From NCBI GenBank assembly GCA_016210585.1, contig JACQTX010000094.1, forward strand, positions 1 to 32,348: 32,348 bases of DNA, read 5' to 3'. The DNA comes from Chloroflexota bacterium. GTDB lineage: Bacteria; Chloroflexota; Dehalococcoidia; Dehalococcoidales; JAFGLR01. The position numbers were made by a program, and so were the translations under genes. This document shows, piece by piece, positions 6,219-24,655 of this stretch (the stretch's first letter is position 1; each line of letters starts with the position of its first letter). The notes under the pieces were generated by a model. The model saw only the letters and a program-made list of their open reading frames with translations. It was not told where the DNA came from and made no database searches.

Positions 6219-7646
6219 GTGGTCACAAGAGAATATGTCGATGACCTGAAATTAATAGGAACTTCGGAGTTCTGTAAGTTAGGCAAGGAACGGAATGTCG
6301 CGAAGGTCCTTTCGCTTTTAGAGAATTTAGGCCGGTTGCCACCACAGTTCGAAGGCGACTGCCTCGTCCCGCTATTGAGCAACAGCGATGACCGCGTTAG
6401 GTTTTTAGCCGCCAAGAATATCGGAAAACTAGCTAATGACAAGTATTTAGAATTACTCAGTCCCGTGGCAAAGAGCGACACCGCCTCGAAAGTGAGAAGG
6501 GAAGCAGTATCGGCTATCGGGCGAATGCGCTCGCGCAAGGCAATCCCTTTTCTCATAGAGATGACTGACGACATAGACCCCAAAGTGGTTATGCAGGTGA
6601 TCAGAGCTCTATTGGTATTTAAGCATGATGCAGATATCCAGAGGGTGCTGAAAAGATTAGCCAATCACCCTAACGAAGTTATACAGTCGGTTATTTCCAA
6701 CGAGTTCCGCGGCCCGAAGCACAATGGCACAAATTCACCGAAGCACACAGAGTCACCAGACCATATGAAGAACGTCGTTGTTCTCGGTGACGTCAGAGAG
6801 GTACTTAGGTCAGTACCAGATGAGTCGATTCATTTAACATTTACATCGCCACCTTATTACAACGCCAGGGACTACTCAATATACCGCAGTTATAGAGAAT
6901 ACCTGGAATTCCTGGCGGATGTTTTCAGGGAAGTCCACCGAGTAACGAAAGAGGGAAGATTCTTTTTACTGAATACCTCGCCGATAATAATTCCTAGGAT
7001 GAGCAGACAATACTCAAGTAAACGGTACCCCATACCATTCGATATACATCCTTATTTGACCGACATGGGGTGGGAATTCATAGATGACATCGTCTGGATT
7101 AAACCCGAGGCTAGCGTCAAAAACCGCAATGCGGGATTCTTGCAACACCGAAAGCCTCTGGCCTACAAACCTAACCCGGTAACCGAGTACGTGATGGTTT
7201 ACAGGAAAAAGACAGAAAAACTCATCGACTGGTCAATTAGGCAATATAGTTGGGACACGATCCAGAAGAGCAGGGTTTCGGGAGAGTATGAAACCACCAA
7301 CACCTGGAGAATCGACCCAGTGTTTGACAGAGTACACAGCGCGGTCTTCCCGTTAGAATTGTGCATCAAGGTTCTGGAGTTTTATTCGTATGCGGGTGAC
7401 GTAGTGTTTGACCCGTTCGCTGGCAGCGGGACTCTTGGGAAGGCCGCTCTGAAGCTAAACAGGTTCTTCTTCATGACTGAGAAGGAATGGAAGTACGTAG
7501 CGCTCATGCGTCAGGAGATTAACACGTTTCAGAATGTCAAACCGAGTCCTCGTTTTCTTGATATAGGCGCGTTTCAGTCCTTGGGAGGAGGTTTTGATGA
7601 CGTTAACGGACACTGTGCTGCAAAACGTAATCCGGAAACTGATTAA
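6219..7646 (+). CDS. DNA methyltransferase (beta class) with N-terminal HEAT repeats
   Basis: This 475-residue protein probably protects host DNA by methylating cytosine N4 or adenine N6 with S-adenosylmethionine. Residues about 1-170 consist of alpha-helical HEAT-type repeats (for example LLSNSDDRVRFLAAKNIGKL and KVRREAVSAIGRM). The catalytic part begins near residue 183 (KNVVVLGDVREVL). Motif IV is TSPPY (209-213), and the SAM-binding DPFAGSGT lies at 398-405. Motif IV before motif I is the beta-class order, and TSPPY is typical of N4-cytosine enzymes. Start is GTG 6219, eight bases after GAGGAG. The 3' end overlaps the endonuclease gene by 50 bases, implying translational coupling. HEAT repeats on a modification enzyme are unusual and may serve protein or DNA contact. 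The DNA is AT-richer than nrdJ. Confidence 0.88.
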   Translation: MVTREYVDDLKLIGTSEFCKLGKERNVAKVLSLLENLGRLPPQFEGDCLVPLLSNSDDRVRFLAAKNIGKLANDKYLELLSPVAKSDTASKVRREAVSAIGRMRSRKAIPFLIEMTDDIDPKVVMQVIRALLVFKHDADIQRVLKRLANHPNEVIQSVISNEFRGPKHNGTNSPKHTESPDHMKNVVVLGDVREVLRSVPDESIHLTFTSPPYYNARDYSIYRSYREYLEFLADVFREVHRVTKEGRFFLLNTSPIIIPRMSRQYSSKRYPIPFDIHPYLTDMGWEFIDDIVWIKPEASVKNRNAGFLQHRKPLAYKPNPVTEYVMVYRKKTEKLIDWSIRQYSWDTIQKSRVSGEYETTNTWRIDPVFDRVHSAVFPLELCIKVLEFYSYAGDVVFDPFAGSGTLGKAALKLNRFFFMTEKEWKYVALMRQEINTFQNVKPSPRFLDIGAFQSLGGGFDDVNGHCAAKRNPETD

Positions 7647-8496
7647 GAATCAAGATTATCGGATTGAGGTAGTAACCCTTATTGACGCCGAGTTTCTCCA
7701 GTATGCAGTTGATTTCTTTGGACAAGTGGTACAGGCCAAACTCAAAAGCACAACTATCGGTAGCGAGTGGTATAGGGACGAATTGCTGAAGAGCGGTCTA
7801 TCAAAAGAAGACCTAGCCATAAATTCCGGCTTGAACATGAAAACCATACAGAATATGTATAACAGCACTACCAGGACGGTAGTCTTAGATGCTGCAGTGG
7901 AGCATTATGAGGCTCTTTGCAGTACGGTCAACAGTCTTGTCGAAAGCGGAAAGGACATAAATATCAACCTAAGCATAAAATTCCACGGAGTAAGTGTAGA
8001 CCTGAACCTGAATGAGAGCCTCATCGTGATTAATACTCTGGCAGTAAAAAGGGCAGCCCTCAGGGGTGGCTTGTGGAGCACAGCCGGCAAACGTGCAGAA
8101 AAACCTTTACTTACAACGCTGTGCCAGTTGTTCAATGTGCCGGTGAAATACTATGATCGAAAGCAATGGCCATATACCGTTCGTGAAACCGACTTCTACT
8201 TGTTCACCGGGGGTACCAAGAACTACAAATGCGAAGTGAAGCTTATGGGTAAGGGTAATCCAGAGAGCGCGGATGCAGTATTCGCTAGGGATGCTAATAT
8301 TCTCGTTGCGGACAAGCTGTCAGACACGAACAAAAGGCAGCTATCTCACAGGGGCATTGAGTGGGTGGAACTGAGAAGCAAGCGAGGGTATAAGAAGTTT
8401 TTCGAGATCCTCAATCACATAGCTATACCCGCGACCGAATTCTCTGGCACTTTGGACAAAAGGCTAGACGAGATTCTTGCAGATATATTTGGCTGA
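7597..8496 (+). CDS. Type II restriction endonuclease, CfrBI-like
   Basis: This is the probable cognate nuclease of the methyltransferase. It has 299 residues. The C-terminal half contains RETDFYLF and CEVKLMGKGNPESADA. Glu197/Asp199 followed by Glu213-Val-Lys215 fits a PD-(D/E)xK metal-dependent nuclease site. The EVKLMGKGNPESADA block resembles the CfrBI family as I remember it, an assignment consistent with a TSPPY N4-cytosine-type partner. The N-terminal half, including LSKEDLAINSGLNMKTIQNMYN (read in two parts: LSKEDLAINSGL, NMKTIQNMYN), looks like a helical or HTH-like recognition region. ATG 7597 follows GGGAGGAGG; a TTG directly before it is ignored. It overlaps the methyltransferase by 50 bases, so the nuclease would be translated after it. 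Family placement is tentative; nuclease function is more secure. Confidence 0.78.
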   Translation: MTLTDTVLQNVIRKLIKNQDYRIEVVTLIDAEFLQYAVDFFGQVVQAKLKSTTIGSEWYRDELLKSGLSKEDLAINSGLNMKTIQNMYNSTTRTVVLDAAVEHYEALCSTVNSLVESGKDININLSIKFHGVSVDLNLNESLIVINTLAVKRAALRGGLWSTAGKRAEKPLLTTLCQLFNVPVKYYDRKQWPYTVRETDFYLFTGGTKNYKCEVKLMGKGNPESADAVFARDANILVADKLSDTNKRQLSHRGIEWVELRSKRGYKKFFEILNHIAIPATEFSGTLDKRLDEILADIFG

Positions 8497-8916: not shown

Positions 8917-9339
8917 CAAATCCTCCCCTTTTGCATATTTCTCCCCAAATCAACCACGGAATCAGGTAAGCAATGGGACAGCCAGCGCCCCTTCGGTAGG
9001 CCCAGGACATATCTGCTGGAACAAGCATCAGGACTTAGAACTTGCCTCCTTTCATCCGGCTGCCCAGTACTTTGTGTCGTCACAAATAGAGCGTGCTTTT
9101 CTGTATCCCTCTCAGCTTTTTAAGGGCACTTTCCCCACGGAATCCGTAGCACTACGGATAGACGGAGTGGGCCGGGCATACTAAGCTGAAAGACGGCAAA
9201 CAAAAAGAGACCCTCGCGCCGGCCAGCGAACAGAGAGTCTCCCGGTACAGGCACGGCACCCGCACCTTCGGCTTTTTTTACAATCGAATCAGACCACAGG
9301 CAAAGACCGAAGTGGGGAACGGGCCTGGAGGAGTATGAT
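8917..9339 (+). promoter_or_regulatory. 423-bp leader region with nested inverted repeats
   Basis: This gene-free stretch precedes the giant oxidase gene. TTTGTG-TCGT-CACAAA (9071-9086) is a perfect palindrome with operator geometry. Downstream lies a nested structure: outer stem TCAGCTT/AAGCTGA (9112-9118 with 9183-9189), inner stem CCCAC/GTGGG (9134-9138 with 9167-9171), and terminal hairpin ATCCGTA/TACGGAT (9142-9148 with 9153-9159). A further stem GAGACCCT/AGAGTCTC (9207-9214 with 9234-9241) has one mismatch. CACCTTCGG (9261 onward) can pair with CCGAAGTG just before the ribosome-binding site. It matches no riboswitch class that I know. Structure is seen; function as a leader RNA is inference. 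Confidence 0.45.
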
Positions 9340-12300
9340 ATGAAGCGGCTTATCCTTACCATTGTGACCGTTATCACCATCCTGGGCTTAGCCCTACCCA
9401 CCGCCGTGCCAGCAGCGGCAGCACCGGTGCCCGGCGGCACTCTTGACCCCACCACCATCCCCAAGTATGAGGCACCTCTCCTTATCCCGCCAACCATGCC
9501 CCGCACCAGTGAGCTACAGGAACCAAACGGCCCGGTTGACTACTACGAGATTGCCGTCCGCCAGTTCCAGCAGCAGGTGCTGCCACCCGGTATGCCCCTG
9601 ACCACTGTCTGGGGCTACGGCTCGGTCAACCACCCGGGCAGCTTCAGCTATCCCGCTTACACCGTTGAGGCCACCTATAATAAGCCCGTCCGCGTCAAGT
9701 GGATAAACGGCCTGGTTGACGCCCTCGGCAACTTCCTGCCGCACCTGTTGCCGATAGACCAGACCATCCACTGGGCTAATCCGCCGGGTGGCATTGCCGG
9801 CCGTGATAATCACGGCATGGACCAGGCACCTTATACCGGGCCCGTGCCCATCATCACCCACCTGCACGGCGCTCATGTGACGGAAGAAAGCGATGGTTTC
9901 CCGGAGGCGTGGTTCCTGCCGGCAGCCAATAACATTCCCGCCGGCTATGCTACAGTCGGCTCCTACTATGACGCTTTCAAAGCCGAGGCTGAGGCTAAAT
10001 ACGGGCAGGCCTGGCAGCCCGGCACCGCCGTTTTCCAGTATCCCAATGACCAGCGGGCGGCCACCCTCTGGTTCCACGACCATACGGTCGGCATGACCCG
10101 CGCCAATGTCTATGCCGGCCCCGCCGGATTTTATCTGTTGCGTGGCGGTCCGGATGATGTGGTCACGGGCACGCTACCCACCGGGGCTCGTGAAATCCCG
10201 CTGGTCATTCAGGACAAGTCCTTCAATGCTGACGGCTCCCTTTTCTATCCGGGTGACCGGGCCTTCTTCGAAGGGCTAGACCCTGCCCAGCTACAGATAC
10301 CCTTCGCACCGGATGCTGCTCTCGGTGGGGAAAGCGATGTTGCCCCCATCTGGAACCCGGAGTTCTTCGGCAATACTATGGTCGTTAATGGCCATACCTG
10401 GCCTTACCTCGATGTCGAGCAGCAGCGCTACCGCTTCCGCCTGCTCAACGCTTCTGACTCCCGTTTCGTCATCCTGAAGCTAAACAATGGTGACCCTATC
10501 TGGCAGATCGGCTCGGACGGCGGCTTCCTGCCCGCGCCCGTCCAGCTAACTGAGCTGCTGCTGGGCCCGGCCGAGCGGGCTGACATCATCGTTGACTTTA
10601 CCGATGTCCCCGCCGGCACCAATCTCATACTACAGAACATCGGCCCGGATGAGCCTTATGGTGGCGGTGTGCCGAGTGTTGACTTTGTCTCCGCTGACCC
10701 GAATACCACCGGCCAGGTGATGCAGTTCCGCGTGATTGCACCCACCGGTGCTGACTTCAGCACGCCGCCGGTGCAGCTAGGCCTGCCTGCCCTTACCCCG
10801 CTCGGTGCCGCCGATAACACCCGCCAGGTATCCCTCAATGAGCTGGACTCAGCTACCGTTGCCGTCCCGGCGGATGAGGAAGGTAACTGGGTGCTTGATG
10901 CCAACGGCAACCTGGTGCTTGACCCAGCGGGTATCCCCTTCGGCCCGGCAATGGCCAGGCTGGGCACACTCAATCCTGACGGGACAGGTAATCCGCTGGA
11001 GTTTGAAGCCCCTATCACGGAGAACCCGGCCCTGGATCATACCGAGGTCTGGGAAATCTACAACTTCACTGCGGATGCGCATCCCATCCATATTCACCAG
11101 GTCCAGTTCCAGGTGGTCAACCGGGAGAGTATTGCCACAGGTACTATCACCGGGCCGGAACCCGGGGAGGTCGGCTTCAAGGACACGCTCATCGCCTACC
11201 CGGATACTATTACTCGCTTCAAGGCCAAATTCGATATCTCCGGTCTCTACGTCTGGCACTGCCACATCCTCTCCCATGAGGATAACGAGATGATGCGGCA
11301 GTTCTACATCGGTTCGCCGCCGGCGGCGCCAGCTAGCCTGTCGGCAATGCTGGTCAGCGCCACCCGGGTGGACCTCACCTGGACGGATAGCTCCACTACC
11401 GAGTCGGCCTTCCGCATCGAGCGCTCCACCGATGGAACTACCTTCGCTGAGATCGGCAGCGTCCTGCCGAACGCCACCAGCTTCAGTGATACGGCCCTCG
11501 AGCTGAACGTCACCTACTATTACAGGGTGATAGCGACCAGCCCCATCGGTGACTCGGCGCCATCAAATGCTGTTTTCATGTCTGTGGCCGTGCCGGAGGT
11601 ACCAACGGACCTGACCGCTATCGTCATGAGTGTCACGCGAGTGGACCTTATCTGGACAAACCAGTCGAGCAATGAGGCGGGCTTCCGGATTGAGCGCAGC
11701 CTGGACGACTTCGCCACTGCACCTGGTGTCACGTTTGCCGTCGCACCCGGTCAGAGGACCTTCAGCGACATTACGGTGACCGCTACCAACACCTACTCCT
11801 ATAGAATTGTTGCCTTCAATGCCGTCGGTGACTCCGCACCGTCCAACACGGCAACAGCAAAGGTGACCGCCAGGCTACAGGCGGGGCCAATAGACCCCCG
11901 CTCCATTTATCAGAATAATCCTTACACCGGTCTTCCCGGCTATTACCAGGATGACCAGGGGACACGGGTGGCGCTGCTGCCCATTACCGGCGATGGCCTC
12001 AACGCGCCCACCCAGATTTACGATGAGCCGGTTCCGACCAATCCCTACTCGGTGTTCCTTGGCTACGGGACGGAGGCCTTCTACTACATGGCGTCATCCG
12101 TTTTCGATACCAGCGCCGGCAATGGGCTGGCCGAGTTCGCTATTGAGGCAGCTTTCGGCGGCGCCGGTGATGCCATGCCCGGCCAGGAGTTCGTCTTCGC
12201 CCGGACCCGCATCAGGATAGACGTCCCCGTCCCGGGTGCCTATACCATCCAGCACCCTTACGGCACCATCACCTTAGACGCGACCCAGGCCGATATTGAT

Positions 12301-15300
12301 GCCGGGAAAGGCATCAACTATACCAGTGACATTGGGGTGGAGCGTGATTTTGCCGCGGCGACCGTTGACAATGGCGGCATCAGCCGTTTCCTGCACCAGA
12401 CTACTCCAGCGCCGCCAGCCGGCTGGATTGGTGATGGCGGCTCAGTCGGCCCGGTCACCGGCAGTCCCACCGGCTACAATAAGGTAAGGGTCACCGGCCC
12501 AGCCGGCAGCAACCTGGGCGGTCCGGGCATTGACTTCGTCGAAAGCAACCTGTTCAGCGTCTCGGGGCGGCTCCAGACCGCAGCAACACCTATCCCCAGC
12601 TTTGCCATGAGCCTTGACCCGACCACCGGCATTGCACCGGCTGCCGTAACCTTTACCGATACGTCAACGGGCACGCCCACCGCCTGGCTATGGGATTTCG
12701 GTGATGGTACTACCAGCACAGAGCAGAACCCCGTCCATCAGTATGCCACGGCCGGGGACTACACCGTCAGGCTGACGGTGGCGAATGCTGCTGCCAGGGT
12801 GGCCACGTCCCGGGTGGTGAGGATTTACAGCGCCCCGGCGGCCAGCTTTACCTACACCCTTCCCAATGGCATCCCACCGGTAGGTATCAGCTTTAGCGAT
12901 ACCTCCACCGGTAACCCGGCAAGCTGGCTGTGGGACTTCGGTGATGGCAGCACCAGTGCCCTGCGGAATCCCGTGCATACCTATGCCGCGGCCGGGGCTT
13001 ACACCAACACGCTTAAGGTGACGAACCCGGCAGGCACCGCGACCGCTTCCCAAACCCTGCGGATTTCCAGCAACCTCACCGCCGGCTTCACGTTGGGCCT
13101 CAACCCGGCGAACGGTGTGGCACCCGTCACGGTAACCCTTACCGATACCTCCGCAGGCGCCGTTACCGATTGGCTATGGGACTTCGGGGATGGCACCACC
13201 AGCACCCTGCAAGCACCGCCGGCCAAGACCTATGACGCGGCGGGCAACTACAAGGTGACACTCACGGTGACCGATGCCGAAGGCTCTGCAGCTACATCAC
13301 GGACTATAAGCATTTATAGCGTGCCGGTGGCCAGCTTCACTAAGAGCGCCGCCACCGGTGTGCCCCCGCTGACCGTCAAATTCACCGATACTTCCACCGG
13401 TAACCCGACAAGCTGGCTGTGGCAGTTCAGTGACGGCGTTACCACCACTACCAGCAATATCGCGAATCCGGTCAAGACCTTTAGCCGGGCAGGACAGTAT
13501 AGCGTCACCCTGACGGTGACAAACCCGGCAGGGACGGATGTCACCTCACAGACGGTAGCGGTCTCCCTGGCTTTTGCCGGGCCGAACCCCATCGTCCTTA
13601 AGCTGGGGCCTATTGCCCCGCGGTCAATCTATCAGGGTAATCCGGACACCGGCCTGCCCGCCTACTACGAAGATGACCAGGGGGCGCAGGTGTCATTGCT
13701 GCCCATTATCGGCAATGGTGTCGTTGGGCCCACCCAGGTTTTTGATAATGTGGTACTGACCAATCCATATTCAGTGTTCCTGGGCTTTGGCACCGAGGCC
13801 TTCTACTATGTAGCGTCATCCGTTTTTGACACCAGTGCCGGCAAGGGGCTGGCCGAGTTCGCTATTGAAGCCGCTTTCGGCGGCGCCGGTGATGCCGTGC
13901 CCGGGCAGGAGTTTATCTTCAACCGGACACGTATCAGGATAGACGTCCCCGTCCCCGGCACCTATACCGTGCAGCATCCCTACGGGACAATCAGCTTCAA
14001 CGTGACGCAGGCGGATATTGATGCCAGAGGAGGCATCAACTACACCAATGATGTCGGCGTGCAGCGTGATTTCCTCACCGCCGGCACGGGCAACCTGTCC
14101 CGTTTCCTGCACCAGACCGTCCCGGCGCCGCCAGCCGGCTGGATTGGCGATGGCGCCTCGGTCGGCCCGGTCACCGGCAGCCCTACCGGCTACAATAAGG
14201 TCAGGGTCACCGGTCCGGGTGGCTTCTTTGCCGAGTCCGCCCAGTTCATGGTGTCCGGGCGCCTGTATGTGCCGCCCCCGGCGGTCAGCTTTACAGTAAG
14301 CCTCGACCCGGCCAACGGTGTGGCTCCCGTGAATGCAACCTTCACCGATACCTCCACCGGCGATGTTGTGAGCTGGCTGTGGGACTTCGGCGACGGCGCC
14401 ACCAGCAACTTGCCTAATCCCACCAAGACTTATACAGAGGCGGGTAACTATGCAGTCACGCTCACGGTAAGCAACGTTGGCGGAACGGCTTCCACATCCC
14501 AGGTGGTGAGCGCCTTCACCCCACCGGTGGCCAGTTTCACAAAGGTGCTCAGCCCGGCGAATGGCGTGGCCCCGGTCACGGTGACTTTCACCGATACCTC
14601 TACAGGCAATGTCACAAGCTGGCTCTGGGACTTCGGTGACGGCACCACCAGCAATTTGCAGAACCCCACCAAGACCTATACCGTGGCCGGTAACTACACC
14701 ATCACCCTGACGGCAACGAACCCCGCCGGGTCGGCTTCCGTTTCTCAGACGGTCAGCGTTTACACGCCGCCGGTAGCCAGCTTCACCAGGTCTCTCAGTC
14801 CCGCGGATGGCATTATCGTGGGCAATACCCCTGTTACGGTCACATTTACCGATACCTCCACCGGCAATATCACCGGCTGGCTGTGGGACTTCGGTGATGG
14901 CACTACCAGTAATGTGCAGAATCCCATTAAGGCCTACGCCGTGGCCGGCGACTACACCATCACCCTGACGGCCACGAATGCCGCCGGGTCGGCTTCTGCT
15001 TCCCAGGCAGTAACCATTCTCGGCCCGCCAAAGGCCCCCAGCGCTCTCACTGCAACCATTGTAAGTCCCACCCAGGTGGACATCACCTGGACGGACAACG
15101 CCTTCAGCGAGACGAGTTTCCGCATCGAGAGGGGTGTAAACGGGGGTGCCTTTGCTGCTATAGGTACCGCTCCGGCTAACGCCACCGTGTTCAGCGACCC
15201 GGCTGTAGCTCTGAACAGCACCTACCGCTACCAGGTTATTGCCGTGAATGACTACGGCGAATCGGCACCATCTAACGTGGTGCAGATTCTGGTGGGCCTG

Positions 15301-18252
15301 CCGGCAGCACCCACCAACCTGGCCGCGCCGTCCATCACCGCAACGCAGGTAACCCTGACCTGGACGGACAACGCCGTCAACGAGAGCGCCATCCTTGTCC
15401 AGCGCGCCACCGACGGTAATTTCCGCAATAGCCTGGTCACCTTCACCCTGGGGCGGAACGTAACGACATATACCGACCTCACCGTGCTCAGTGCGACAAG
15501 GTATTTCTACCGTGTTTTGGCCCAGAACGGTGTGGGGCAGTCGGCACCCACCAACGTGGTGAGAGTGGAAACGCCGGTGGCCAGTGTCCAGAGCATTCCC
15601 GCAGCGCCCACCACACTAGGGGCAACCCGGGTGGAAGCGGGACGCATTGACATCCAGTGGACGGACAACGCCAGCAACGAGGCCGGCTTCCGCATCCAGC
15701 GTTCTACCGCGGCCACCTTTACGGAAAACCTGTTTGTGACCACGGTAGCATCGAACAAGACCAATTTCTCCGACCGCGGGGCCAGTGCCGGCATAACCTT
15801 CTACTACCGTGTCTTTGCCTTCAATAGCGCCGGTAGCTCGGCACCTTCAAATGTCATATCCGCCACGCCCCCGGCGCCCACCGCGGCACCGGTGGCGCCA
15901 TTGAACCTGAATGGCCAGGTGCTCATCGGGTCGGTGGCTGTGGAGCTTACCTGGAATGATGCTTCTAGCGACGAGGCCGGCTTCCGTATCGAGCGGGCTG
16001 ATGACCCGGGCTTCACCCAGAACGTCAAGCGCTGGACGGTAGGGGCCAGCTTTAACAGGTATAAGGATGTTACCGGTGCCCGGGACAGTACCTACTACTA
16101 CCGTATCGTGGCCCACAATGCTATCGGGGAAACGATCTCGTCCACCTTCACCGTCAAAGCGGCCTCACCGGACTCTGCACCGAAAAACCTGGTGGTCGTC
16201 TCGGCTTCTGACAGGATGGTTGACCTAGAATGGGAGGATACCACGAATAATGAGACTGGCTTCCTCGTGGAGCGGGCCACCGATGCGGCTTTCACGGCTG
16301 ATGTCACCAGCTTTAACGTGCCCAACCCGGCCTTTGCCCTGGATAACACGGGGCCGGGTCCCGCACAGGGGGACGGCTCGGCCAAGATACGGTTCTCTGA
16401 TGTCACCATTGAGGCACTCAAGACATACCATTACCATGTCCGGGCTGTAAACGACCTCGGGCAGTCCGCAGATTCCGCCGCGGTGACCACCGCTGTAGCC
16501 GTAACCACTCTCCCCGGTGCACCATTCGGACTGGTCGCAACGCCAGCAGCCCTCGGGCGGAACGACCTCACCTGGATAGACAATGCCAATAACGAGACAG
16601 GCTTCCGTGTCGAGCGCTCCACGGACGACGTTACGTTCGCCGCTATCGCCGACCTTGATGCCAATGCCACATCCTACTCTGACACGGCGGCCACGTCAGG
16701 CGCCACATACTCGTATCGTGTCATCGCGCTGAACACCCTGGGTGAATCGCAGGCCTCGAATGTGGCAGTGGTGACCTCCCTTGCTATTCCGGCGCCATCG
16801 GAACTGAAAGTGGCGTGGGCCTCACCCCAGGCCAAACTGACCTGGATAGATAACTCTGCCACCGAGACTGGCTTCCGTATCGAGCGCTCTACCAACAACT
16901 TCACTACCATCCAGGCTACTTTCAGTGTTGCGGCTAACACGACCACGTTTAATGACGCTGGTATCACTGTGGGTATTACCTACTCCTACCGCGTCGTCGC
17001 CGTTAGTGACATAGGCGATTCCCCGGTCTCCAATGTGGCCACCATAAAGGTTATGCCGCCCGCTGAGCCTGCCGAGATAGGAGCATCGGCGGTGCCCGTT
17101 ACGGTGACGATGAAAGCTGGCGGCGAGCTGGAAGCACCGGAGCCAGTCATCCTGAATAGCTCTGGCAAGACGACGAAGGCAGCCAGGCTGGAGAGCCGGG
17201 GTAAGAAAGTCGCCATCGCTATTCCTGCCGGCACCACGATGCGCAAGGCTGATGGGACACCATTGACCACAATAACGTCGGCGCAGGTGGTGACACCACC
17301 GCCACCACCGGCGAGCAATGTTATCGTCGCCAGCCAGGACTTCGGGCCGGACGGCGCTAGCTTCAGTCCCGCCATCACACTCACCATCAGCTATGACCCA
17401 GCCAGTCTGCCCGCCGGTGTGACTGAACGGGACCTGGCTATCGCTTTCTGGGATGGTGCCAAATGGGTAACGCTAGAGACTACGGTTGATACACAAAATA
17501 AGACGGCTTCGGCCCAGGTGACCCATTTCACGGCTTTCGCTCTGCTTGGTGCCCAGACGCCGCCACCGGCACCGGCGCCCATGCTCAATATTGTCTCGCC
17601 TAAACCGGGCGACACCCTTGTCGCCGGCAGCATCACGGTTACCGTCAGCGTGGCTGAGTTCCAGCTTGTGCCGCCGGGGACAGTGGCCATCCCCGGTCAG
17701 GGACATCTCCATTACTATCTGGATGTGCCGATACCCACCACGCCGGGAGCACCTGCCGTGACCGCGCCCGGCACCTACAAAGCCACACCCGGGACAGCCG
17801 TGGCGTGGGAGAATGTCATGCCGGGAACGCACACCTTTGGCGCCCAGCTTGTGAACGTGAACCACACGCCATTGGAGCCTCCGGTGACGGCAACGGTTAC
17901 CGTGACCGTAACCCAGCCTGTCGTCCCACCGGTGCCACAACCACCGGCCATACCGGCACCCACTGTCCCACCCGCACCCGTGCCAACACCCGCACCTAGC
18001 CCAGCACCTGTGCCAATGCCGTCACCCACGCTGGTGCCCGCCCCGCTGCCCACGACAGCGCCCGGACCCATTATCACGGTGGTGCCTGCCCCGGTGCCCG
18101 CACCCTCCGTCATCGTAGTACCGGCCCCGGTGCCGGCAGCGGGACCAGCACCCCAGGGTGCTAGCTGGTGGCTAATTGGCAGCATTATCGGGGCCGTTGT
18201 CGTGCTGGGGCTGCTCATCTTCCTGGTGCGCCGTCCCAGGTCAACCGGCTAG
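9340..18252 (+). CDS. Giant secreted multicopper oxidase with FN3, PKD and a duplicated module
   Basis: This is a 2970-residue extracellular, membrane-anchored protein. A signal peptide (about 1-27) is followed by a complete multicopper oxidase with all four copper motifs: HLHGAH (174-179), HDH (246-248), HPIHIH (581-586) and HCHILSHEDNEM (640-651), the last with Cys641, His646 and Met651 for the type 1 copper. Such enzymes oxidise phenols, metals or bilirubin-like substrates while reducing oxygen. Then come two FN3-like domains (about 662-847), module A (849-1078), four PKD domains (1087-1410, WLWDFGDG signatures), module A' (1423-1642), three PKD (1648-1893), seven FN3 (1896-2570), a ZU5/Ig-like region (2577-2735), a beta domain (2748-2860), a Pro-rich stalk, a transmembrane helix (about 2943-2963) and a basic tail. 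GGAGGAG precedes ATG 9340. The substrate is unknown. Confidence 0.93.
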   Translation: MKRLILTIVTVITILGLALPTAVPAAAAPVPGGTLDPTTIPKYEAPLLIPPTMPRTSELQEPNGPVDYYEIAVRQFQQQVLPPGMPLTTVWGYGSVNHPGSFSYPAYTVEATYNKPVRVKWINGLVDALGNFLPHLLPIDQTIHWANPPGGIAGRDNHGMDQAPYTGPVPIITHLHGAHVTEESDGFPEAWFLPAANNIPAGYATVGSYYDAFKAEAEAKYGQAWQPGTAVFQYPNDQRAATLWFHDHTVGMTRANVYAGPAGFYLLRGGPDDVVTGTLPTGAREIPLVIQDKSFNADGSLFYPGDRAFFEGLDPAQLQIPFAPDAALGGESDVAPIWNPEFFGNTMVVNGHTWPYLDVEQQRYRFRLLNASDSRFVILKLNNGDPIWQIGSDGGFLPAPVQLTELLLGPAERADIIVDFTDVPAGTNLILQNIGPDEPYGGGVPSVDFVSADPNTTGQVMQFRVIAPTGADFSTPPVQLGLPALTPLGAADNTRQVSLNELDSATVAVPADEEGNWVLDANGNLVLDPAGIPFGPAMARLGTLNPDGTGNPLEFEAPITENPALDHTEVWEIYNFTADAHPIHIHQVQFQVVNRESIATGTITGPEPGEVGFKDTLIAYPDTITRFKAKFDISGLYVWHCHILSHEDNEMMRQFYIGSPPAAPASLSAMLVSATRVDLTWTDSSTTESAFRIERSTDGTTFAEIGSVLPNATSFSDTALELNVTYYYRVIATSPIGDSAPSNAVFMSVAVPEVPTDLTAIVMSVTRVDLIWTNQSSNEAGFRIERSLDDFATAPGVTFAVAPGQRTFSDITVTATNTYSYRIVAFNAVGDSAPSNTATAKVTARLQAGPIDPRSIYQNNPYTGLPGYYQDDQGTRVALLPITGDGLNAPTQIYDEPVPTNPYSVFLGYGTEAFYYMASSVFDTSAGNGLAEFAIEAAFGGAGDAMPGQEFVFARTRIRIDVPVPGAYTIQHPYGTITLDATQADIDAGKGINYTSDIGVERDFAAATVDNGGISRFLHQTTPAPPAGWIGDGGSVGPVTGSPTGYNKVRVTGPAGSNLGGPGIDFVESNLFSVSGRLQTAATPIPSFAMSLDPTTGIAPAAVTFTDTSTGTPTAWLWDFGDGTTSTEQNPVHQYATAGDYTVRLTVANAAARVATSRVVRIYSAPAASFTYTLPNGIPPVGISFSDTSTGNPASWLWDFGDGSTSALRNPVHTYAAAGAYTNTLKVTNPAGTATASQTLRISSNLTAGFTLGLNPANGVAPVTVTLTDTSAGAVTDWLWDFGDGTTSTLQAPPAKTYDAAGNYKVTLTVTDAEGSAATSRTISIYSVPVASFTKSAATGVPPLTVKFTDTSTGNPTSWLWQFSDGVTTTTSNIANPVKTFSRAGQYSVTLTVTNPAGTDVTSQTVAVSLAFAGPNPIVLKLGPIAPRSIYQGNPDTGLPAYYEDDQGAQVSLLPIIGNGVVGPTQVFDNVVLTNPYSVFLGFGTEAFYYVASSVFDTSAGKGLAEFAIEAAFGGAGDAVPGQEFIFNRTRIRIDVPVPGTYTVQHPYGTISFNVTQADIDARGGINYTNDVGVQRDFLTAGTGNLSRFLHQTVPAPPAGWIGDGASVGPVTGSPTGYNKVRVTGPGGFFAESAQFMVSGRLYVPPPAVSFTVSLDPANGVAPVNATFTDTSTGDVVSWLWDFGDGATSNLPNPTKTYTEAGNYAVTLTVSNVGGTASTSQVVSAFTPPVASFTKVLSPANGVAPVTVTFTDTSTGNVTSWLWDFGDGTTSNLQNPTKTYTVAGNYTITLTATNPAGSASVSQTVSVYTPPVASFTRSLSPADGIIVGNTPVTVTFTDTSTGNITGWLWDFGDGTTSNVQNPIKAYAVAGDYTITLTATNAAGSASASQAVTILGPPKAPSALTATIVSPTQVDITWTDNAFSETSFRIERGVNGGAFAAIGTAPANATVFSDPAVALNSTYRYQVIAVNDYGESAPSNVVQILVGLPAAPTNLAAPSITATQVTLTWTDNAVNESAILVQRATDGNFRNSLVTFTLGRNVTTYTDLTVLSATRYFYRVLAQNGVGQSAPTNVVRVETPVASVQSIPAAPTTLGATRVEAGRIDIQWTDNASNEAGFRIQRSTAATFTENLFVTTVASNKTNFSDRGASAGITFYYRVFAFNSAGSSAPSNVISATPPAPTAAPVAPLNLNGQVLIGSVAVELTWNDASSDEAGFRIERADDPGFTQNVKRWTVGASFNRYKDVTGARDSTYYYRIVAHNAIGETISSTFTVKAASPDSAPKNLVVVSASDRMVDLEWEDTTNNETGFLVERATDAAFTADVTSFNVPNPAFALDNTGPGPAQGDGSAKIRFSDVTIEALKTYHYHVRAVNDLGQSADSAAVTTAVAVTTLPGAPFGLVATPAALGRNDLTWIDNANNETGFRVERSTDDVTFAAIADLDANATSYSDTAATSGATYSYRVIALNTLGESQASNVAVVTSLAIPAPSELKVAWASPQAKLTWIDNSATETGFRIERSTNNFTTIQATFSVAANTTTFNDAGITVGITYSYRVVAVSDIGDSPVSNVATIKVMPPAEPAEIGASAVPVTVTMKAGGELEAPEPVILNSSGKTTKAARLESRGKKVAIAIPAGTTMRKADGTPLTTITSAQVVTPPPPPASNVIVASQDFGPDGASFSPAITLTISYDPASLPAGVTERDLAIAFWDGAKWVTLETTVDTQNKTASAQVTHFTAFALLGAQTPPPAPAPMLNIVSPKPGDTLVAGSITVTVSVAEFQLVPPGTVAIPGQGHLHYYLDVPIPTTPGAPAVTAPGTYKATPGTAVAWENVMPGTHTFGAQLVNVNHTPLEPPVTATVTVTVTQPVVPPVPQPPAIPAPTVPPAPVPTPAPSPAPVPMPSPTLVPAPLPTTAPGPIITVVPAPVPAPSVIVVPAPVPAAGPAPQGASWWLIGSIIGAVVVLGLLIFLVRRPRSTG
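11884..12573 (+). repeat. Duplicated module A (first copy) inside the oxidase gene
   Basis: This encodes about 230 residues from GPIDPRSIYQNN to VSGRL. The same module recurs at about 13606-14265 with strong protein and DNA identity. Shared landmarks are PRSIYQ, NPYSVFLG, GTEAFYY, SSVFDTSAG, GLAEFAIEAAFGGAGDA, RIRIDVPVPG and WIGDG. I know no named family with this combination. Each copy is followed by a PKD block, suggesting that module plus PKD domains were duplicated together. Confidence 0.85.
12595..15018 (+). repeat. PKD-domain repeats in the oxidase gene
   Basis: Seven PKD units of about 80 codons carry the signature FTDTSTG followed by WLWDFGDG. Four lie at about 12598-13572 and three at about 14281-15018, separated by module A'. 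The fourth unit has a degenerate signature (WLWQFSDG). PKD domains are beta-sandwich spacers found in surface proteins and often take part in polysaccharide or cell-surface contact. Confidence 0.85.
13606..14265 (+). repeat. Duplicated module A' (second copy) inside the oxidase gene
   Basis: This encodes about 220 residues from GPIAPRSIYQGN to VSGRL, parallel to the copy at 11884-12573. It lacks about ten residues near its end (the NLGGPGIDF part of the first copy) and has scattered substitutions. Long identical DNA stretches, such as the one encoding LAEFAIEAAFGGAGDA, point to a fairly recent duplication or continuing gene conversion. Confidence 0.85.
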
Positions 18253-18270: not shown

Positions 18271-18302
18271 GCAATAGCCCCCGGTCTTCCGGGGGCTATT
18301 GC
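18271..18302. terminator. Bidirectional 14-bp hairpin between convergent genes
   Basis: GCAATAGCCCCCGG (18271-18284), loop TCTT, CCGGGGGCTATTGC (18289-18302) form a perfect 14-bp stem 18 bases after the oxidase stop and 84 bases before the end of the convergent MFS gene. No strong T run follows on either strand, but strength and position indicate transcription termination for both genes. Confidence 0.75.
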
Positions 18303-19806: not shown

Positions 19807-20163
19807 ATGGCCGAAAAGGATGTTCGCCTCGAAGAAATTCCCCTGGACTCGCCAAGGCTGAGGGATTTTGTCAGGTTTCCCTGGCAGCTCTACAAGGGTG
19901 ACCCCTGCTGGACACCGCCGCTTAAGGGCGACCTGCTGGGGAGCCGTTTGCTGGGATTGCCCGGCTTGCTGACATCCAGGCACCCTTACCATCGTCATGC
20001 CCCTGACATAGCCCTGCGCTATCTAGCGGTGCCATTTTCGCGGGACGCTCGGGCGATCCGTGGCTTTGTATACAAATCGGCTCACCTTGTGGATGCAATG
20101 ACAGGTCTCGTCTCGCCAGATGTCGTTGTCAGGCTATATGAAGGCATCGCGTTACCTGGCTAA
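19807..20163 (+). pseudogene. Truncated GNAT-like N-acetyltransferase
   Basis: The first 65 or so residues (RLRDFVRFPWQLYKGDPCWT, PPLKGDLLG, HPYHRHA) match the N-terminus of a family of roughly 380-residue GNAT-type proteins with the FxxFPWxLYxxDPxWxPPL signature. After HPYHRHA the expected continuation is lost and the frame runs into unrelated sequence, ending 12 bases inside the convergent ligD. The acetyl-CoA binding domain is missing, so this is a decayed 5' fragment. The break point near base 20010 could mark the insertion edge of the end-joining cluster. Confidence 0.6.
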
Positions 20164-22860
20164 CTTCAGTTTTTGCTTCAGATCGCTCTTGGCCGCCAAG
20201 ATATTGCCCCACAGGTCGCCAAGCTGCGCCAGCCGGTCCGGCACATTGAGGATAGTGAAGTCAGTCGGGTAGACCGCGCCTAGCTCATCCCAGTGCAAAG
20301 GCGTTGAGACCGTGGCTTCAGGTGATGGACGGAGCGAATAGGCGGAAGCCAGCGTTTTGCCACGGACGTTCTGGTTATAGTCCAGGAATACCTTGCCGCT
20401 CCGTTTTGCCACTGCCCAGTCGGTGGTGACTGATCTCGGATGGCGTTTTGTCAGGAACTGGCAGATGGTCTTTGCGGCGGCGTGAACAGCGTGAAAATCG
20501 AGCTGGCGCAGTATCGGCACATAAACATGAAGCCCGGTAATGCCCGATGTCTTGACGAAGGACGATAGCGAGAGCTCATCGAGGGTTTCCTTCAGCCAGA
20601 GAGCGACCTGGCAGGTCAGGGCAAAGCCTTCCCGGTTCAGTTGCGGCTCAGCACCGGGCAGCTCAGTCCCGGAGTAGATATATGGGTCCAGGTCAAAGAT
20701 GATAAAGTCAGGGTACCTGCTGAGAAAATCCACTCTATCTGCCTCGTCAGTCAGATTGTCAGGGACTTCCCTATCCGGGCCCGGGCTGACGCGGGAGAAC
20801 CAGCTATGGAACTCCAGGTCAGCGAGCTGCCCCAGCCACATGAGAGTGGGAAGATTGTTGCAGAGAATGTAATCACGGCGCTTCTCACTGCGTTCTGCCA
20901 GTGGCACGGTAACTACGAAATCGGGGGCCGGGCCGTTCCAGTGCTTCTGGAAGAAGTGCTCGCCGTGGATACCATCCGGGTAGCGGCTCAGTGTGATAGG
21001 GCGGTCGCGTAGATGTCTCAGGAGATGTGGTGAGACTCCGGCGAGATAGATGAGCAGGTCTCGCTTTGTCAGGGCGGGCCGCCCATCAAGGGCGGGCCAC
21101 AGCTCTTTGCCCAGGTTATTAAGCTCTATTCTATACTGGCCAATATCCAGCATGAAACTGTCCCGATGGTCTCCCAACTGCTTTAAGATACGTGTGACCG
21201 CATCGTCAGGCGCCGCACCGGTTTCTTTCGAAGAGACCGGCGTGGGCGGCATAATGCCGATTTGACTGCGGTGCACCTGCCCAGGGGGTTTATCATGGCG
21301 AAGGCGCAGGAAAACGGGCACACGGAGCTTTCCATCCCGTGTCCATTCCGCGAACTTGACCTCAGCCACGAGCTCCGGCCTGACCCATATCACCGGTGCA
21401 TTCACCTCTGGCACTATGGCGAAGGGGCACTGCTGTGTCTTGATGGCTTTCAGTCTTGTTTGCAAGTCCTCGAGGGAACGGTCATCAAATCCGGTGCCAA
21501 CATGGCCAGCTGATATCAGCTGGTCCTCCTCATTGTAGTAGCCGAGCAAAAGCGCACCGAAAGTGCCCGACCGGCCGCCCTTGCCTTGTGTATAGCCACC
21601 GATGATGAAGTCATCCGTCCTAGTGGACTTTATCTTAAGCCAGTCAGCAGAGCGTTCTCCCGGCCTATAGAGGCTATCTTTTCTTTTGGCGATAATACCT
21701 TCCAGGCCCGTAGCAATAGCACCCTCGTAGATAGCAGTGCCGTCGCCTTCGAAATGCTCCAGCAGGCGCACCGAGGGTGAAGGGTGTAAGATACGCCTGA
21801 GCAGCTTTTTTCTCTCCACCAGGGACACCTCCAGCAGGCTGTAGCCGTCCAGGTACAGAATATCGAAGACATAGTAGGTAATGACCGCTGCCTTTTGCCC
21901 CTGGCTTTCTTTCCGATGCATTGCGTCCAGGAATCCCTGCAGGCATTGGAAGCATATTCTGCCTCGCACATCCAGAGCGATGATTTCACCATCCAGCACT
22001 AGCTGGCCAACGGGTTGTCCTTTCAGGTCATCCCTGACACGGGCGTATTTCTCAGTTACATGACCACTTCGGGAAAGCAGACGGACCGTGCCCTGATTGA
22101 TTGTAGCAATAATACGATAGCCGTCCAGCTTCGGCTCGAAAAACCAGTCAGGGTTGGAAAAAGGCTTTGTTGCGGTGGCAGCCAGCATCGGCGCTATCAC
22201 TTCCGGGAACGGTGCTTTACGACTTCCGGGAAGGCTTGATAGTCCTGCAACAGCAACGGGACGCGGTGCGGTGCCCGCCTTAAGATCAGCAATGGTTGGC
22301 CCGGAAAGCACCGAGGCATCTTGTCCAAGGACTTCATTTCCCGAGGTGGCAAAGTCATCCTGATGCTTGATAAGCAGCCAGTCTTTTTCGCCGCGTTTCA
22401 TTTTGACCAGCGTCCAGGAGCCCTTAAGTTTGTGGCCGCGCAGAAAGAAGGACAGCTTGCCATTAGCCAGGCCCTGCCGTATGCGCTCTTGAGCGCTGGC
22501 CCTGTCATGGAAGTATAGCTCACCATCATCATCGGGGGAATAGTCGCCGCGGTCCCAGACTATAACCTGGCCGGCGCCATATTCTCCTTTGGGAATGGTC
22601 CCTTCAAAGGAAGCGTAGTCGAGCGGGTGGTCTTCCACCATCACAGCCAGGCGCTTGACCTGAGGGTCCAGCGAAGGTCCGCCGGGAACGGCCCAGGATT
22701 TCAGCACGCCCTCAAGCTCCAGGCGGAAATCATAGTGTAGCCGGCGCGCGGCATGTTTTTGCACCACGAAGATGAGAGTCCCCTCACCCTCCATCCCGGT
22801 TCCCGGTAATGGCTCGGGAGTAAGACCCAGCGTGCGCTTCTCTTGATATTCCTTAAGCAT
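20152..22860 (-). CDS. ligD: Multifunctional DNA ligase D (phosphoesterase-ligase-polymerase)
   Basis: LigD repairs double-strand breaks with Ku by trimming, filling and sealing ends. The 902 residues contain three domains in the order phosphoesterase, ligase, polymerase. The phosphoesterase (about 1-195) has His36, His42, Tyr43 and Asp44 in KHAARRLHYDFRLELEG and His78 in DHPLDYASFEG. The ATP-dependent ligase (about 220-540) has the adenylated Lys244 in EPKLDGYR, then LDGEI, EGIIAKR and DWLKIKS. The archaeo-eukaryotic primase-type polymerase fills the C-terminus, with ELWPALDGRPALTKRDLL, IIFDLDP and SGITGLHVYVPI. All key residues appear present. On the minus strand TATAAT (22879-22874) lies only 13 bases before the ATG and no Shine-Dalgarno is visible, so a nearly leaderless mRNA is possible. 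Ku is encoded 1 kb away. Confidence 0.96.
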   Translation of the reverse strand: MLKEYQEKRTLGLTPEPLPGTGMEGEGTLIFVVQKHAARRLHYDFRLELEGVLKSWAVPGGPSLDPQVKRLAVMVEDHPLDYASFEGTIPKGEYGAGQVIVWDRGDYSPDDDGELYFHDRASAQERIRQGLANGKLSFFLRGHKLKGSWTLVKMKRGEKDWLLIKHQDDFATSGNEVLGQDASVLSGPTIADLKAGTAPRPVAVAGLSSLPGSRKAPFPEVIAPMLAATATKPFSNPDWFFEPKLDGYRIIATINQGTVRLLSRSGHVTEKYARVRDDLKGQPVGQLVLDGEIIALDVRGRICFQCLQGFLDAMHRKESQGQKAAVITYYVFDILYLDGYSLLEVSLVERKKLLRRILHPSPSVRLLEHFEGDGTAIYEGAIATGLEGIIAKRKDSLYRPGERSADWLKIKSTRTDDFIIGGYTQGKGGRSGTFGALLLGYYNEEDQLISAGHVGTGFDDRSLEDLQTRLKAIKTQQCPFAIVPEVNAPVIWVRPELVAEVKFAEWTRDGKLRVPVFLRLRHDKPPGQVHRSQIGIMPPTPVSSKETGAAPDDAVTRILKQLGDHRDSFMLDIGQYRIELNNLGKELWPALDGRPALTKRDLLIYLAGVSPHLLRHLRDRPITLSRYPDGIHGEHFFQKHWNGPAPDFVVTVPLAERSEKRRDYILCNNLPTLMWLGQLADLEFHSWFSRVSPGPDREVPDNLTDEADRVDFLSRYPDFIIFDLDPYIYSGTELPGAEPQLNREGFALTCQVALWLKETLDELSLSSFVKTSGITGLHVYVPILRQLDFHAVHAAAKTICQFLTKRHPRSVTTDWAVAKRSGKVFLDYNQNVRGKTLASAYSLRPSPEATVSTPLHWDELGAVYPTDFTILNVPDRLAQLGDLWGNILAAKSDLKQKLKLAR

Positions 22861-22873
22861 CTGTAATATCTAT

Positions 22874-22879
22874 ATTATA
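22874..22879 (-). promoter_or_regulatory. -10 box of ligD
   Basis: TATAAT on the minus strand ends 13 bases before the ligD ATG. The transcript would have a 5' leader of only a few bases. No good -35 is visible 16-18 bases upstream. Confidence 0.45.
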
Positions 22880-22924
22880 GCCTTCTTTGGCATGGCCCGT
22901 AGTATGGATTACGGCGAAAGCAGC

Positions 22925-22940
22925 TATAATTGAAATAGGG
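22925..22940 (+). promoter_or_regulatory. Shared end-joining promoter element (DUF72 gene)
   Basis: TATAATTGAAATAGGG lies 17 bases before the DUF72 start. A nearly identical block, TATAATAGAAATAGGG, occurs on the minus strand before the Ku gene (24681-24666), 15 of 16 bases the same. The TATAAT part is a perfect -10. Confidence 0.55.
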
Positions 22941-22957
22941 GTACTCCGGAGGAAAAT

Positions 22958-23872
22958 ATGGCACGGGTGCTTATCGGGATCTCTTCCTGGGCAGACAAGT
23001 CTCTTATGGAGAGTGGCTTTTATCCTGAGGAGATTAAGACGCCGGCAGAAAGGCTGCGTTACTACAGTCAGAATTTCCCGGTTGCCGAGATAGACTCAAG
23101 CTATCACCACTTTCCGACTCGCCGTGACCTGGACCTTTGGCTGGGTAATGCTGTCGAGGGATTTGTCTTTGATGTGAAGGCCTTCAGCCTGTTTACGCAC
23201 CACCCTACCCCTTTTAACTCTTTGCCCGGAACGATAAGAGATGAGTTTGGCCCACGGATAAAGGCCAAGGGCAATGTTTACTTGCACCACCTGCCCCCAG
23301 AAGCGGTTGACAGTCTGTGGCAGGGCTTTGTCCGAACAATTGAGACCTTCCGGCGCGCCGGAAAGTTTGGGGCGGCCCTCTTTCAGTTTCCGCCATGGTT
23401 CCACCCCGATAGCAAAAACTTCGACTACATGGCGCACGTTAGAGAGAGATTATCGTCATACCCGGTTGCCGTTGAGTTCCGCTTCGGCGCCTGGCTGGAT
23501 GAGGCTAACCGCAAAAAGACCCTGGGCTTCTTGAAAGAGCACGGGATGGCCCTGGTCTGTGTTGACGAGCCTCAAGGTTTTGCCTCCAGCGTGGCGCCTA
23601 TCGCCGAGGTCACCGCGCCTCCTGGCTTTGTCCGGTTTCACGGGCGTAATAGAGAAGCCTGGGGACGGAAGGATGTCACGGCTGACGAGAAGTTCCGCTA
23701 TCTGTATGAGGAAAATGAGCTGGAAGAGTGGGTGCCCAGAATACGCGCCATGGCACATGAGGCTGATGAGCTACACATCATTTTCAAGAATAAGCACGCT
23801 GATTTCCCGGTAAGAAATGCCCGCCAGCTTGGCCGCATGCTGGGCGCGGCGTCCGGGACTCTTACTATCTAA
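22958..23872 (+). CDS. DUF72 (YecE-like) protein in the end-joining cluster
   Basis: This 304-residue protein belongs to the DUF72 family, a TIM-barrel-like fold of unknown activity, cytoplasmic. Typical features are the N-terminal IGISSWADKSL, the YYSQNFPVAEIDSSYHHFPT block, FVFDVKAFSLFTHH, and VAVEFRFGAWL. It is close to the usual family length of 250-300. CCGGAGG sits six bases before ATG 22958. It lies between ligD (divergent) and Ku (convergent, 6-base gap). DUF72 genes are often seen near DNA-end-repair genes or elsewhere without clear meaning. The promoter element shared with Ku suggests co-regulation, which is inference. Confidence 0.9.
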   Translation: MARVLIGISSWADKSLMESGFYPEEIKTPAERLRYYSQNFPVAEIDSSYHHFPTRRDLDLWLGNAVEGFVFDVKAFSLFTHHPTPFNSLPGTIRDEFGPRIKAKGNVYLHHLPPEAVDSLWQGFVRTIETFRRAGKFGAALFQFPPWFHPDSKNFDYMAHVRERLSSYPVAVEFRFGAWLDEANRKKTLGFLKEHGMALVCVDEPQGFASSVAPIAEVTAPPGFVRFHGRNREAWGRKDVTADEKFRYLYEENELEEWVPRIRAMAHEADELHIIFKNKHADFPVRNARQLGRMLGAASGTLTI

Positions 23873-23878
23873 GGCTTT

Positions 23879-24655
23879 TCAGCGCCTCCGAGCGGCCACA
23901 GCTTCTATGCTGGCTTTCAATGCTGACATCAGGTCGGGGACCTCCTCGATCTTGGGCTCGGGAGCCGCCACAACCTCCTCTCCCTGGATCTTAGCTTCGA
24001 CAACCTTTTCCAGCGCCTGCCGGTATTCGTCCTTATACTGCTCAGGTTGGAAGCGGCTCGTCATCACATCAATAAGCGACCGGGCTACTCCAAGCTCGGT
24101 CGCCCTGGTCTCCATTTCCGGTATGCTGATTTCGGAAGGCGATAAGACCTCGTCCTGGTAGTGAAGCGTATGTAAGACCAGCAGCTTGTCCAGTGGTCGC
24201 AAACAGCAGAGGTGCTCCCGCCTCTGGAATGACACCTTGGCTATGCCGATTCGTCCTGACTCACGCAAGGACTCCCTGAGCAAACAGTAGGGCTTGGCGG
24301 CAAACTCTTCCGGTTCCAGGTAGTGGCTGCCGTAGAAATAGGTGGGGTCAATCTCTTCTGCCTTAACAAAGCTCAGTATCTCAATCACGTGAGTCGTTCT
24401 GACAGGCACCCGGAAAAAATCGCTCTCCTGCAAGACCACATACTGGTCTTTCCCATATTCGAACGCACGAACAGTATCTTTGATACTGAAGTACTCATCA
24501 TCTTGCTCGCAGTGCAGGACTTGTTTCGGTCTGGTGAGACATTTCTTGTGAAGCAGATGAAAGCTGAGGGCATGGGTAGTAGCCGCCACATACATCTTGA
24601 CCGGTATGCTCACCATGCCGAAGCTAATGGCCCCCTTCCAAAAGGCTTTTGCCAT
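23879..24655 (-). CDS. ku: Non-homologous end-joining protein Ku
   Basis: Bacterial Ku forms a homodimeric ring that binds DNA ends and recruits LigD. The 258-residue protein begins with the canonical AKAFWKGAISFGMVSIPVKMY and contains LHKKCLTRPKQVLHC, the family's YxxL and FYxxxYYLEP-like segments (here TYFYGSHYLEP), and the conserved LVLHTLHYQDEV. The C-terminal tail (EEVVAAPEPKIEEV, then a basic end) matches the variable LigD-interaction/DNA-binding tail. GGGAGGTGG precedes the ATG and TATAAT lies 20 bases upstream of the start. It is convergent with the DUF72 gene with six bases between stops. Confidence 0.96.
   Translation of the reverse strand: MAKAFWKGAISFGMVSIPVKMYVAATTHALSFHLLHKKCLTRPKQVLHCEQDDEYFSIKDTVRAFEYGKDQYVVLQESDFFRVPVRTTHVIEILSFVKAEEIDPTYFYGSHYLEPEEFAAKPYCLLRESLRESGRIGIAKVSFQRREHLCCLRPLDKLLVLHTLHYQDEVLSPSEISIPEMETRATELGVARSLIDVMTSRFQPEQYKDEYRQALEKVVEAKIQGEEVVAAPEPKIEEVPDLMSALKASIEAVAARRR

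What the first reader, a model, noticed from the sequence alone, without database searches (positions are those of the whole stretch)
9340..18252. 2970-residue multicopper oxidase fused to a long FN3/PKD surface array
A full four-copper oxidase at the N-terminus is carried on roughly 2300 residues of beta-domain spacers and a C-terminal membrane anchor. This would hold an oxygen- or metal-active enzyme far from the cell surface. In a lineage with a class II reductase and probable anaerobic relatives, it points to oxygen scavenging, metal (Mn, Fe) oxidation or lignin/humic phenol attack. The architecture is unusual.
Basis: partly seen in the sequence, partly recalled or inferred. Interest (0 to 1): 0.6.

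Follow-up and report, generated by a model that had tools for sequence, protein, structure and literature searches.

The report
Copper oxidase on giant surface stalk
A bacterium related to Dehalococcoides-type Chloroflexota carries a complete laccase-like copper enzyme built onto a 2,300-residue membrane-anchored stalk, and one unnamed building block of that stalk turns out to be encoded next to copper-oxidase genes in several unrelated bacterial phyla, which suggests the two work together outside the cell.

Summary
Observation confirmed. Window 9340-18252 is one uninterrupted 2970-codon gene with its own ribosome-binding site and a 14-bp hairpin after the stop. It encodes a signal peptide, a complete CotA-type three-domain multicopper oxidase (MCO; all 12 copper ligands; model TM 0.88 to CotA), 9 FN3 and 7 PKD domains, an anchor cassette, DUF4399, a Pro-rich stretch and one C-terminal TM helix.

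The stalk, without MCO, is a resident protein type in other genomes of the class; the MCO's nearest kin (57-68% identity) are stand-alone secreted enzymes of Nitrosomonas, Geobacteraceae, Nitrospirota and others. So the gene looks like a natural fusion of an acquired oxidase with a lineage-typical stalk. GP-module genes sit within 10 kb of MCO genes far more often than chance (5 of 12 unselected loci, 0.28 expected), some beside diheme MauG-type cytochromes and SCO1: a link not found in the papers I searched. The genome holds five further MCO genes, including an anchored MnxG-like one, but no detected complete heme-copper oxidase or cytochrome bd.

Most likely function: surface-tethered, O2-coupled oxidation of Mn(II)/Fe(II) or phenolics. 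Substrate unproven.

The parts
9327..9333 (+). ribosome-binding site GGAGGAG, 6 nt before the ATG
   Evidence: sequence printed
9340..9423 (+). Sec-type signal peptide (residues 1-28)
   Evidence: hydropathy peak at residues 4-12; 56% identical over 27 residues to the signal peptide of a diheme MauG-type protein in the same genome
9424..11313 (+). CotA-type three-domain multicopper oxidase (residues 29-658), all 12 Cu ligands
11314..11877 (+). two FN3 domains (659-846)
11878..12585 (+). GP module copy 1 (847-1082), unnamed all-beta module
12586..13575 (+). four PKD domains (1083-1412)
13600..14271 (+). GP module copy 2 (1421-1644), 76% identical to copy 1
14272..15027 (+). three PKD domains (1645-1896)
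15028..17070 (+). seven FN3 domains (1897-2577)
17071..17619 (+). C-terminal cassette domain (2578-2760), 35-43% identical to the matching part of other anchored proteins of this genome and of the class
   Evidence: E 1e-39 to 1e-41; 3e-21 to the MnxG-like MCO
17620..17934 (+). DUF4399 domain (2761-2865), 69% identical to the one in the MCO-less stalk protein of G084
17935..18153 (+). Pro-rich linker, probably wall-spanning
18154..18249 (+). C-terminal TM helix and RRPRSTG tail (2939-2970)
   Evidence: hydropathy up to 2.97 at 2945
18271..18302 (+). hairpin GCAATAGCCCCCGG-TCTT-CCGGGGGCTATTGC after the stop, probable terminator; no U-run, so not scored by the scan
   Evidence: sequence; scan negative

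Best explanation
A natural fusion protein: a secreted CotA-type (laccase-like) multicopper oxidase set at the tip of a giant, membrane-anchored stalk of the kind this lineage makes without an oxidase. Shown: complete copper sites including equivalents of CotA's proton-relay acids (D185, E647), signal peptide, C-terminal TM anchor, domain order, and homology of stalk and oxidase to separately existing proteins. Inferred: the enzyme is displayed tens of nanometres out, takes one electron at a time from a substrate at the T1 copper and reduces O2 to water at the trinuclear centre. Inferred from neighbourhood statistics: the stalk's GP modules are functional partners of MCOs, holding the substrate or a mineral surface or docking partner redox proteins. 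Most likely substrates are Mn(II)/Fe(II) or humic phenolics outside the cell. The GP module's exact role is a guess.
For: MCO fold and ligands. MCO-less stalk homologues with the same modules and anchor in other genomes of the class: G084 2040 aa (also with DUF4399), G063 2117 aa. Nearest MCOs are stand-alone. GP modules next to MCO genes: in the Nitrosomonas MAGs (L012/L013) directly downstream of the sister MCO, in a Nitrospirae MAG (L014) two genes upstream, and beside other MCO types, some with SCO1 or diheme MauG. 5 of 12 unselected GP loci have an MCO within 10 kb against 0.28 expected, P about 1e-5. The same genome has an MnxG-like 1662-aa MCO sharing the C-terminal cassette, and a split-MCO cluster with a diheme MauG protein and cassette-bearing anchored proteins.
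Against: No biochemical data. No detected complete heme-copper oxidase or cytochrome bd, so O2 may rarely be available to the cell. The MCO's own neighbours (R-M genes upstream, MFS, LigD, Ku) contain no electron-transfer partner. Some GP loci have no MCO nearby (7 of 12 unselected; several on short contigs). The 12 loci are not all independent lineages.
Confidence: 0.62

Rival explanations
1. Surface electron-transfer component working with solid metal oxides, as proposed for OmpB/OmpC of Geobacter: the MCO passes electrons to or from minerals rather than mainly reducing O2.
For: OmpB is a surface MCO with an FN3 domain, needed for Fe(III) oxide reduction (PMC5566968; PMC3495685). This genome lacks detected terminal oxidases and carries a split-MCO plus diheme MauG cluster.
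Against: The MCO is CotA-like with an intact trinuclear O2 site. No multiheme cytochrome partner lies beside it. OmpB was not available for sequence comparison.
Confidence: 0.15
2. Oxygen scavenger protecting an oxygen-sensitive anaerobe at its surface.
For: No terminal oxidases found; MCOs reduce O2 to water. MCOs of a distant branch occur in five genomes (family f8) of the same order.
Against: An MCO needs a continuous electron donor outside the cell, and none is evident. Only 8 of 156 genomes of the order carry this broad MCO type.
Confidence: 0.12
3. Copper detoxification (CueO-like cuprous oxidase).
For: Weak CueO family score, 130 bits.
Against: Far below the CueO cut-off of 525 bits. 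Few Met residues (10 in 658) and no Met-rich insert. No copper-export genes nearby. A 2300-residue stalk is not needed for this.
Confidence: 0.08
4. Assembly chimera of an MCO gene and a separate stalk gene.
For: Draft MAG in 254 contigs; the tail contains 81%-identical DNA repeats that could confuse an assembler; fusion seen in one genome only.
Against: In-frame join at a domain boundary, uniform GC and codon usage, one RBS at the start and one hairpin at the end, and 11 kb from the contig ends. The repeats lie inside the tail, not at the MCO junction.
Confidence: 0.04

Closest known systems
CotA laccase / bacterial bilirubin oxidase (Bacillus; PDB 1gsk, 9bd5, 7z5p)
   Same: three cupredoxin domains, 12 Cu ligands, equivalents of D116 and E498, about 33% identity, TM 0.88 normalised to CotA
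   Different: CotA is a ~513-residue spore-coat protein without a stalk or TM anchor; here the domain is ~630 residues with insertions
Stand-alone secreted MCOs of Nitrosomonas, Geobacteraceae, Nitrospirota, Methylomirabilota, Myxococcota, Anaerolineae (L007-L025, L042, L045)
   Same: 57-68% identity over the whole MCO domain for the close set, same clade
   Different: 650-740 residues, no FN3/PKD/GP tail; in L012/L013/L014 the GP module is a separate neighbouring gene
OmpB of Geobacter sulfurreducens / MofA of Leptothrix
   Same: extracellular MCO; OmpB carries an FN3 domain; related clusters carry SCO1 and cytochrome c genes (PMC5566968)
Giant GP/FN3/PKD stalk proteins of the same class (G084 2040 aa, G063 2117 aa)
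   Same: same modules, cassette, DUF4399 (G084) and TM anchor
   Different: no MCO domain; in G084 a GP module stands at the N-terminal tip where the window has the MCO
G235 MCO (1228-aa frame, same order)
   Same: MCO followed by three PKD domains
   Different: MCO of a distant branch, TAT-like signal, no FN3, GP module or giant stalk

Membership tests
CotA-type three-domain multicopper oxidase | 12 copper ligands in four motifs | tested here: met
CotA-type three-domain multicopper oxidase | CotA fold | tested here: met
CotA-type three-domain multicopper oxidase | oxidase activity | not testable with these tools
   needs expression
CueO copper efflux oxidase | passes NCBIfam equivalog cut-off (525 bits) | tested here: not met
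   130 bits
PhsA o-aminophenol oxidase | passes NCBIfam equivalog cut-off (950 bits) | tested here: not met
   208 bits
OmpB/MofA surface MCO | MCO plus FN3 domain, secreted | tested here: met
OmpB/MofA surface MCO | gene cluster with cytochrome c and copper chaperone | tested here: not met
   window neighbours are R-M, MFS, LigD, Ku
OmpB/MofA surface MCO | closest sequence kin | not tested
   OmpB/MofA sequences not available in the collections reached
GP-module giant surface protein | GP modules with FN3/PKD, cassette and C-terminal TM anchor | tested here: met

The most novel reading that the evidence does not exclude
The unnamed GP module marks a widespread, undescribed extracellular copper-oxidase system (MCO plus GP-module surface protein, in some loci with diheme MauG-type cytochrome, SCO1 and a histidine kinase/LuxR regulator) spread across Chloroflexota, Nitrospirota, Nitrosomonadaceae and Myxococcota. 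The window protein is its fused one-piece form, used by a bacterium without terminal oxidases as its way to couple extracellular metals or humics to O2 or minerals.
Probability: 0.3. Interest if true: 0.75.

Novelty: new variant of a known kind. Interest (0 to 1): 0.55.

Why it matters
Which bacterial copper oxidases act on minerals and humics outside the cell, and with which partners, is poorly known. The fusion, plus the neighbourhood statistics across phyla, give an unnamed domain a testable partner (the MCO), and offer a single-gene, tetherable enzyme for assays of Mn(II), Fe(II) and phenol oxidation. It also puts six MCO genes, one MnxG-like, in a lineage thought of as anaerobic.

Tried and rejected
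GP-module fold: model pLDDT 71; Foldseek found nothing with E under 0.4. VIA-align gave Cu,Zn-SOD-like beta sandwiches at Z 6.0, 94 residues, 3.8 A, below the level that means more than a common arrangement, so no fold is claimed. GP module in Pfam (E up to 1) and NCBIfam: no family. Long N-terminal extension of the L020 MCO frame: its sequence looks like a non-coding open frame, not a fusion. COX1 hit in the own genome: a 139-residue protein with only the first helices of COX1, not an oxidase. Papers on MCO with PKD, MCO in Dehalogenimonas or Dehalococcoidia: nothing on this architecture. Promoter scan upstream: no sigma-70-like site.

Full report
WHAT IS THERE. The ORF at 9340-18252 (+) is 2970 codons with no internal stop, preceded by GGAGGAG 6 nt before the ATG and followed by a perfect 14-bp hairpin. 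It encodes a protein of about 310 kDa with one cysteine, C641, which is the T1-copper ligand. Order: signal peptide, MCO (29-658), FN3x2, GP module, PKDx4, GP module, PKDx3, FN3x7, a ~180-residue cassette, DUF4399, Pro-rich linker, TM helix, RRPRSTG tail. 'GP module' is my name for the unnamed ~235-residue module that begins G-P-[IV] (called GPI in my notes; it has nothing to do with GPI anchors).

THE OXIDASE. Pfam and PDB sequence searches place it with CotA laccase. An AlphaFold2 model from 23 relatives has pLDDT 86 and pTM 0.89, and its best solved matches are CotA structures with TM 0.88 normalised to CotA at 33% identity. All 12 ligands and the two proton-relay acids of CotA (D116, E498) have equivalents. 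NCBIfam equivalog cut-offs for CueO and PhsA are not met. Closest sequences (57-68% identity) are stand-alone secreted enzymes from Nitrosomonas, Geobacteraceae, Nitrospirota, Methylomirabilota, Myxococcota, Planctomycetota and Chloroflexota. In a tree the query groups with Nitrosomonas and planctomycete enzymes (support 96, short branch), while MCOs of two genomes of its own class fall at the base and others of its order in a distant branch. Horizontal acquisition is likely, as an inference.

THE STALK. GP modules occur in 6 of 393 sampled genomes of the class (own genome included) and 5 of 400 of the phylum. In G084 and G063 they form giant proteins of 2040 and 2117 residues with FN3, PKD and the same C-terminal cassette and anchor, but no MCO. 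G084 also has the DUF4399, 69% identical. G084's protein starts with a GP module where the window's starts with the MCO. The simplest history is an oxidase placed in front of a resident stalk.

A FUSION AND NEIGHBOURHOOD LINK. A profile of the GP module found it next to the same MCO subfamily as a separate gene: directly downstream in two Nitrosomonas MAGs (L012, L013) and two genes upstream in a Nitrospirae MAG (L014). 11 of 21 genomes picked for having the MCO subfamily also hold GP modules. Many of those loci lie beside other MCOs: with SCO1, twice, in N. supralitoralis (L121); with diheme MauG-type proteins in L125 and L130 and, further along the cluster, L120; and in L097, L124 and L131. 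In the Chloroflexota genomes found only by their GP module, 5 of 12 loci have a Cu-oxidase_3 gene within 10 kb; 0.28 expected from MCO density; Poisson P about 1e-5. In the MCO-picked genomes it is 5 of 17, 0.45 expected, before counting the L012/L013/L014/L121 pairs, which the Pfam search missed. Some of these genomes are related, so the true significance is lower.

THE ORGANISM. The phylum is Chloroflexota: G740, 'same phylum', matches a Brevefilum contig of the same length. The MAG is 91% complete. No cytochrome bd was found, and the only COX1 match is a 139-residue fragment-like protein. It has five further MCO genes at three loci: a 1662-aa MnxG-like protein (MnxG profile E 7e-41 but far below its cut-off) sharing the C-terminal cassette; a split-MCO cluster with a diheme MauG protein of 1146 aa and cassette-bearing anchored proteins; and a split pair with a cupredoxin.

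MECHANISM. Shown: competent-looking copper sites, secretion signal, anchor, stalk. Inferred: substrate oxidised at T1, O2 reduced at the trinuclear centre, away from the membrane; GP modules hold substrate, mineral or partner proteins. I favour Mn(II)/Fe(II) or phenolic oxidation; OmpB-like electron transfer, O2 scavenging and copper detoxification are rivals in falling order. OmpB is a real precedent for a surface MCO with an FN3 domain (PMC5566968; PMC3495685), but I could not compare sequences.

NOVELTY. CotA-type MCOs and MCO-PKD or MCO-FN3 fusions are known kinds or have examples here (G235 and Micromonospora). The architecture with GP modules, and the cross-phylum GP-MCO link, were not found in the papers searched; that library is partial.

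Noticed in passing
6219-8496: Low-GC (47%) restriction-modification island: a HEAT-repeat/N6-N4 DNA methylase fusion (475 aa) followed by a CfrBI-like restriction endonuclease; the methylase's codon usage is very unlike its neighbours (RSCU r 0.18).
   Followed up: partly
L157 4604-9592 (G000:C20): Second giant MCO in the same genome, 1662 aa, MnxG-like by profile, with four copper motifs and the same C-terminal cassette and TM anchor; Cu-oxidase_3 frames of 1599-1900 aa occur in other Chloroflexota genomes.
   Followed up: partly
L159 130-10929 (G000:C11): Split-MCO cluster: two MCO halves (511 and 583 aa), an 827-aa anchored protein, a 1146-aa diheme MauG-type protein with Ig domains, and a 468-aa anchored protein, next to sensor-kinase and regulator genes.
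   Followed up: partly
   Followed up: partly
20152-24655: NHEJ pair: LigD (902 aa) and Ku (258 aa), with a DUF72 gene between them on the opposite strand.
   Followed up: no
2496-3350: ImmA/IrrE-type metallopeptidase gene directly before the class II ribonucleotide reductase gene and after nrdR.
   Followed up: no
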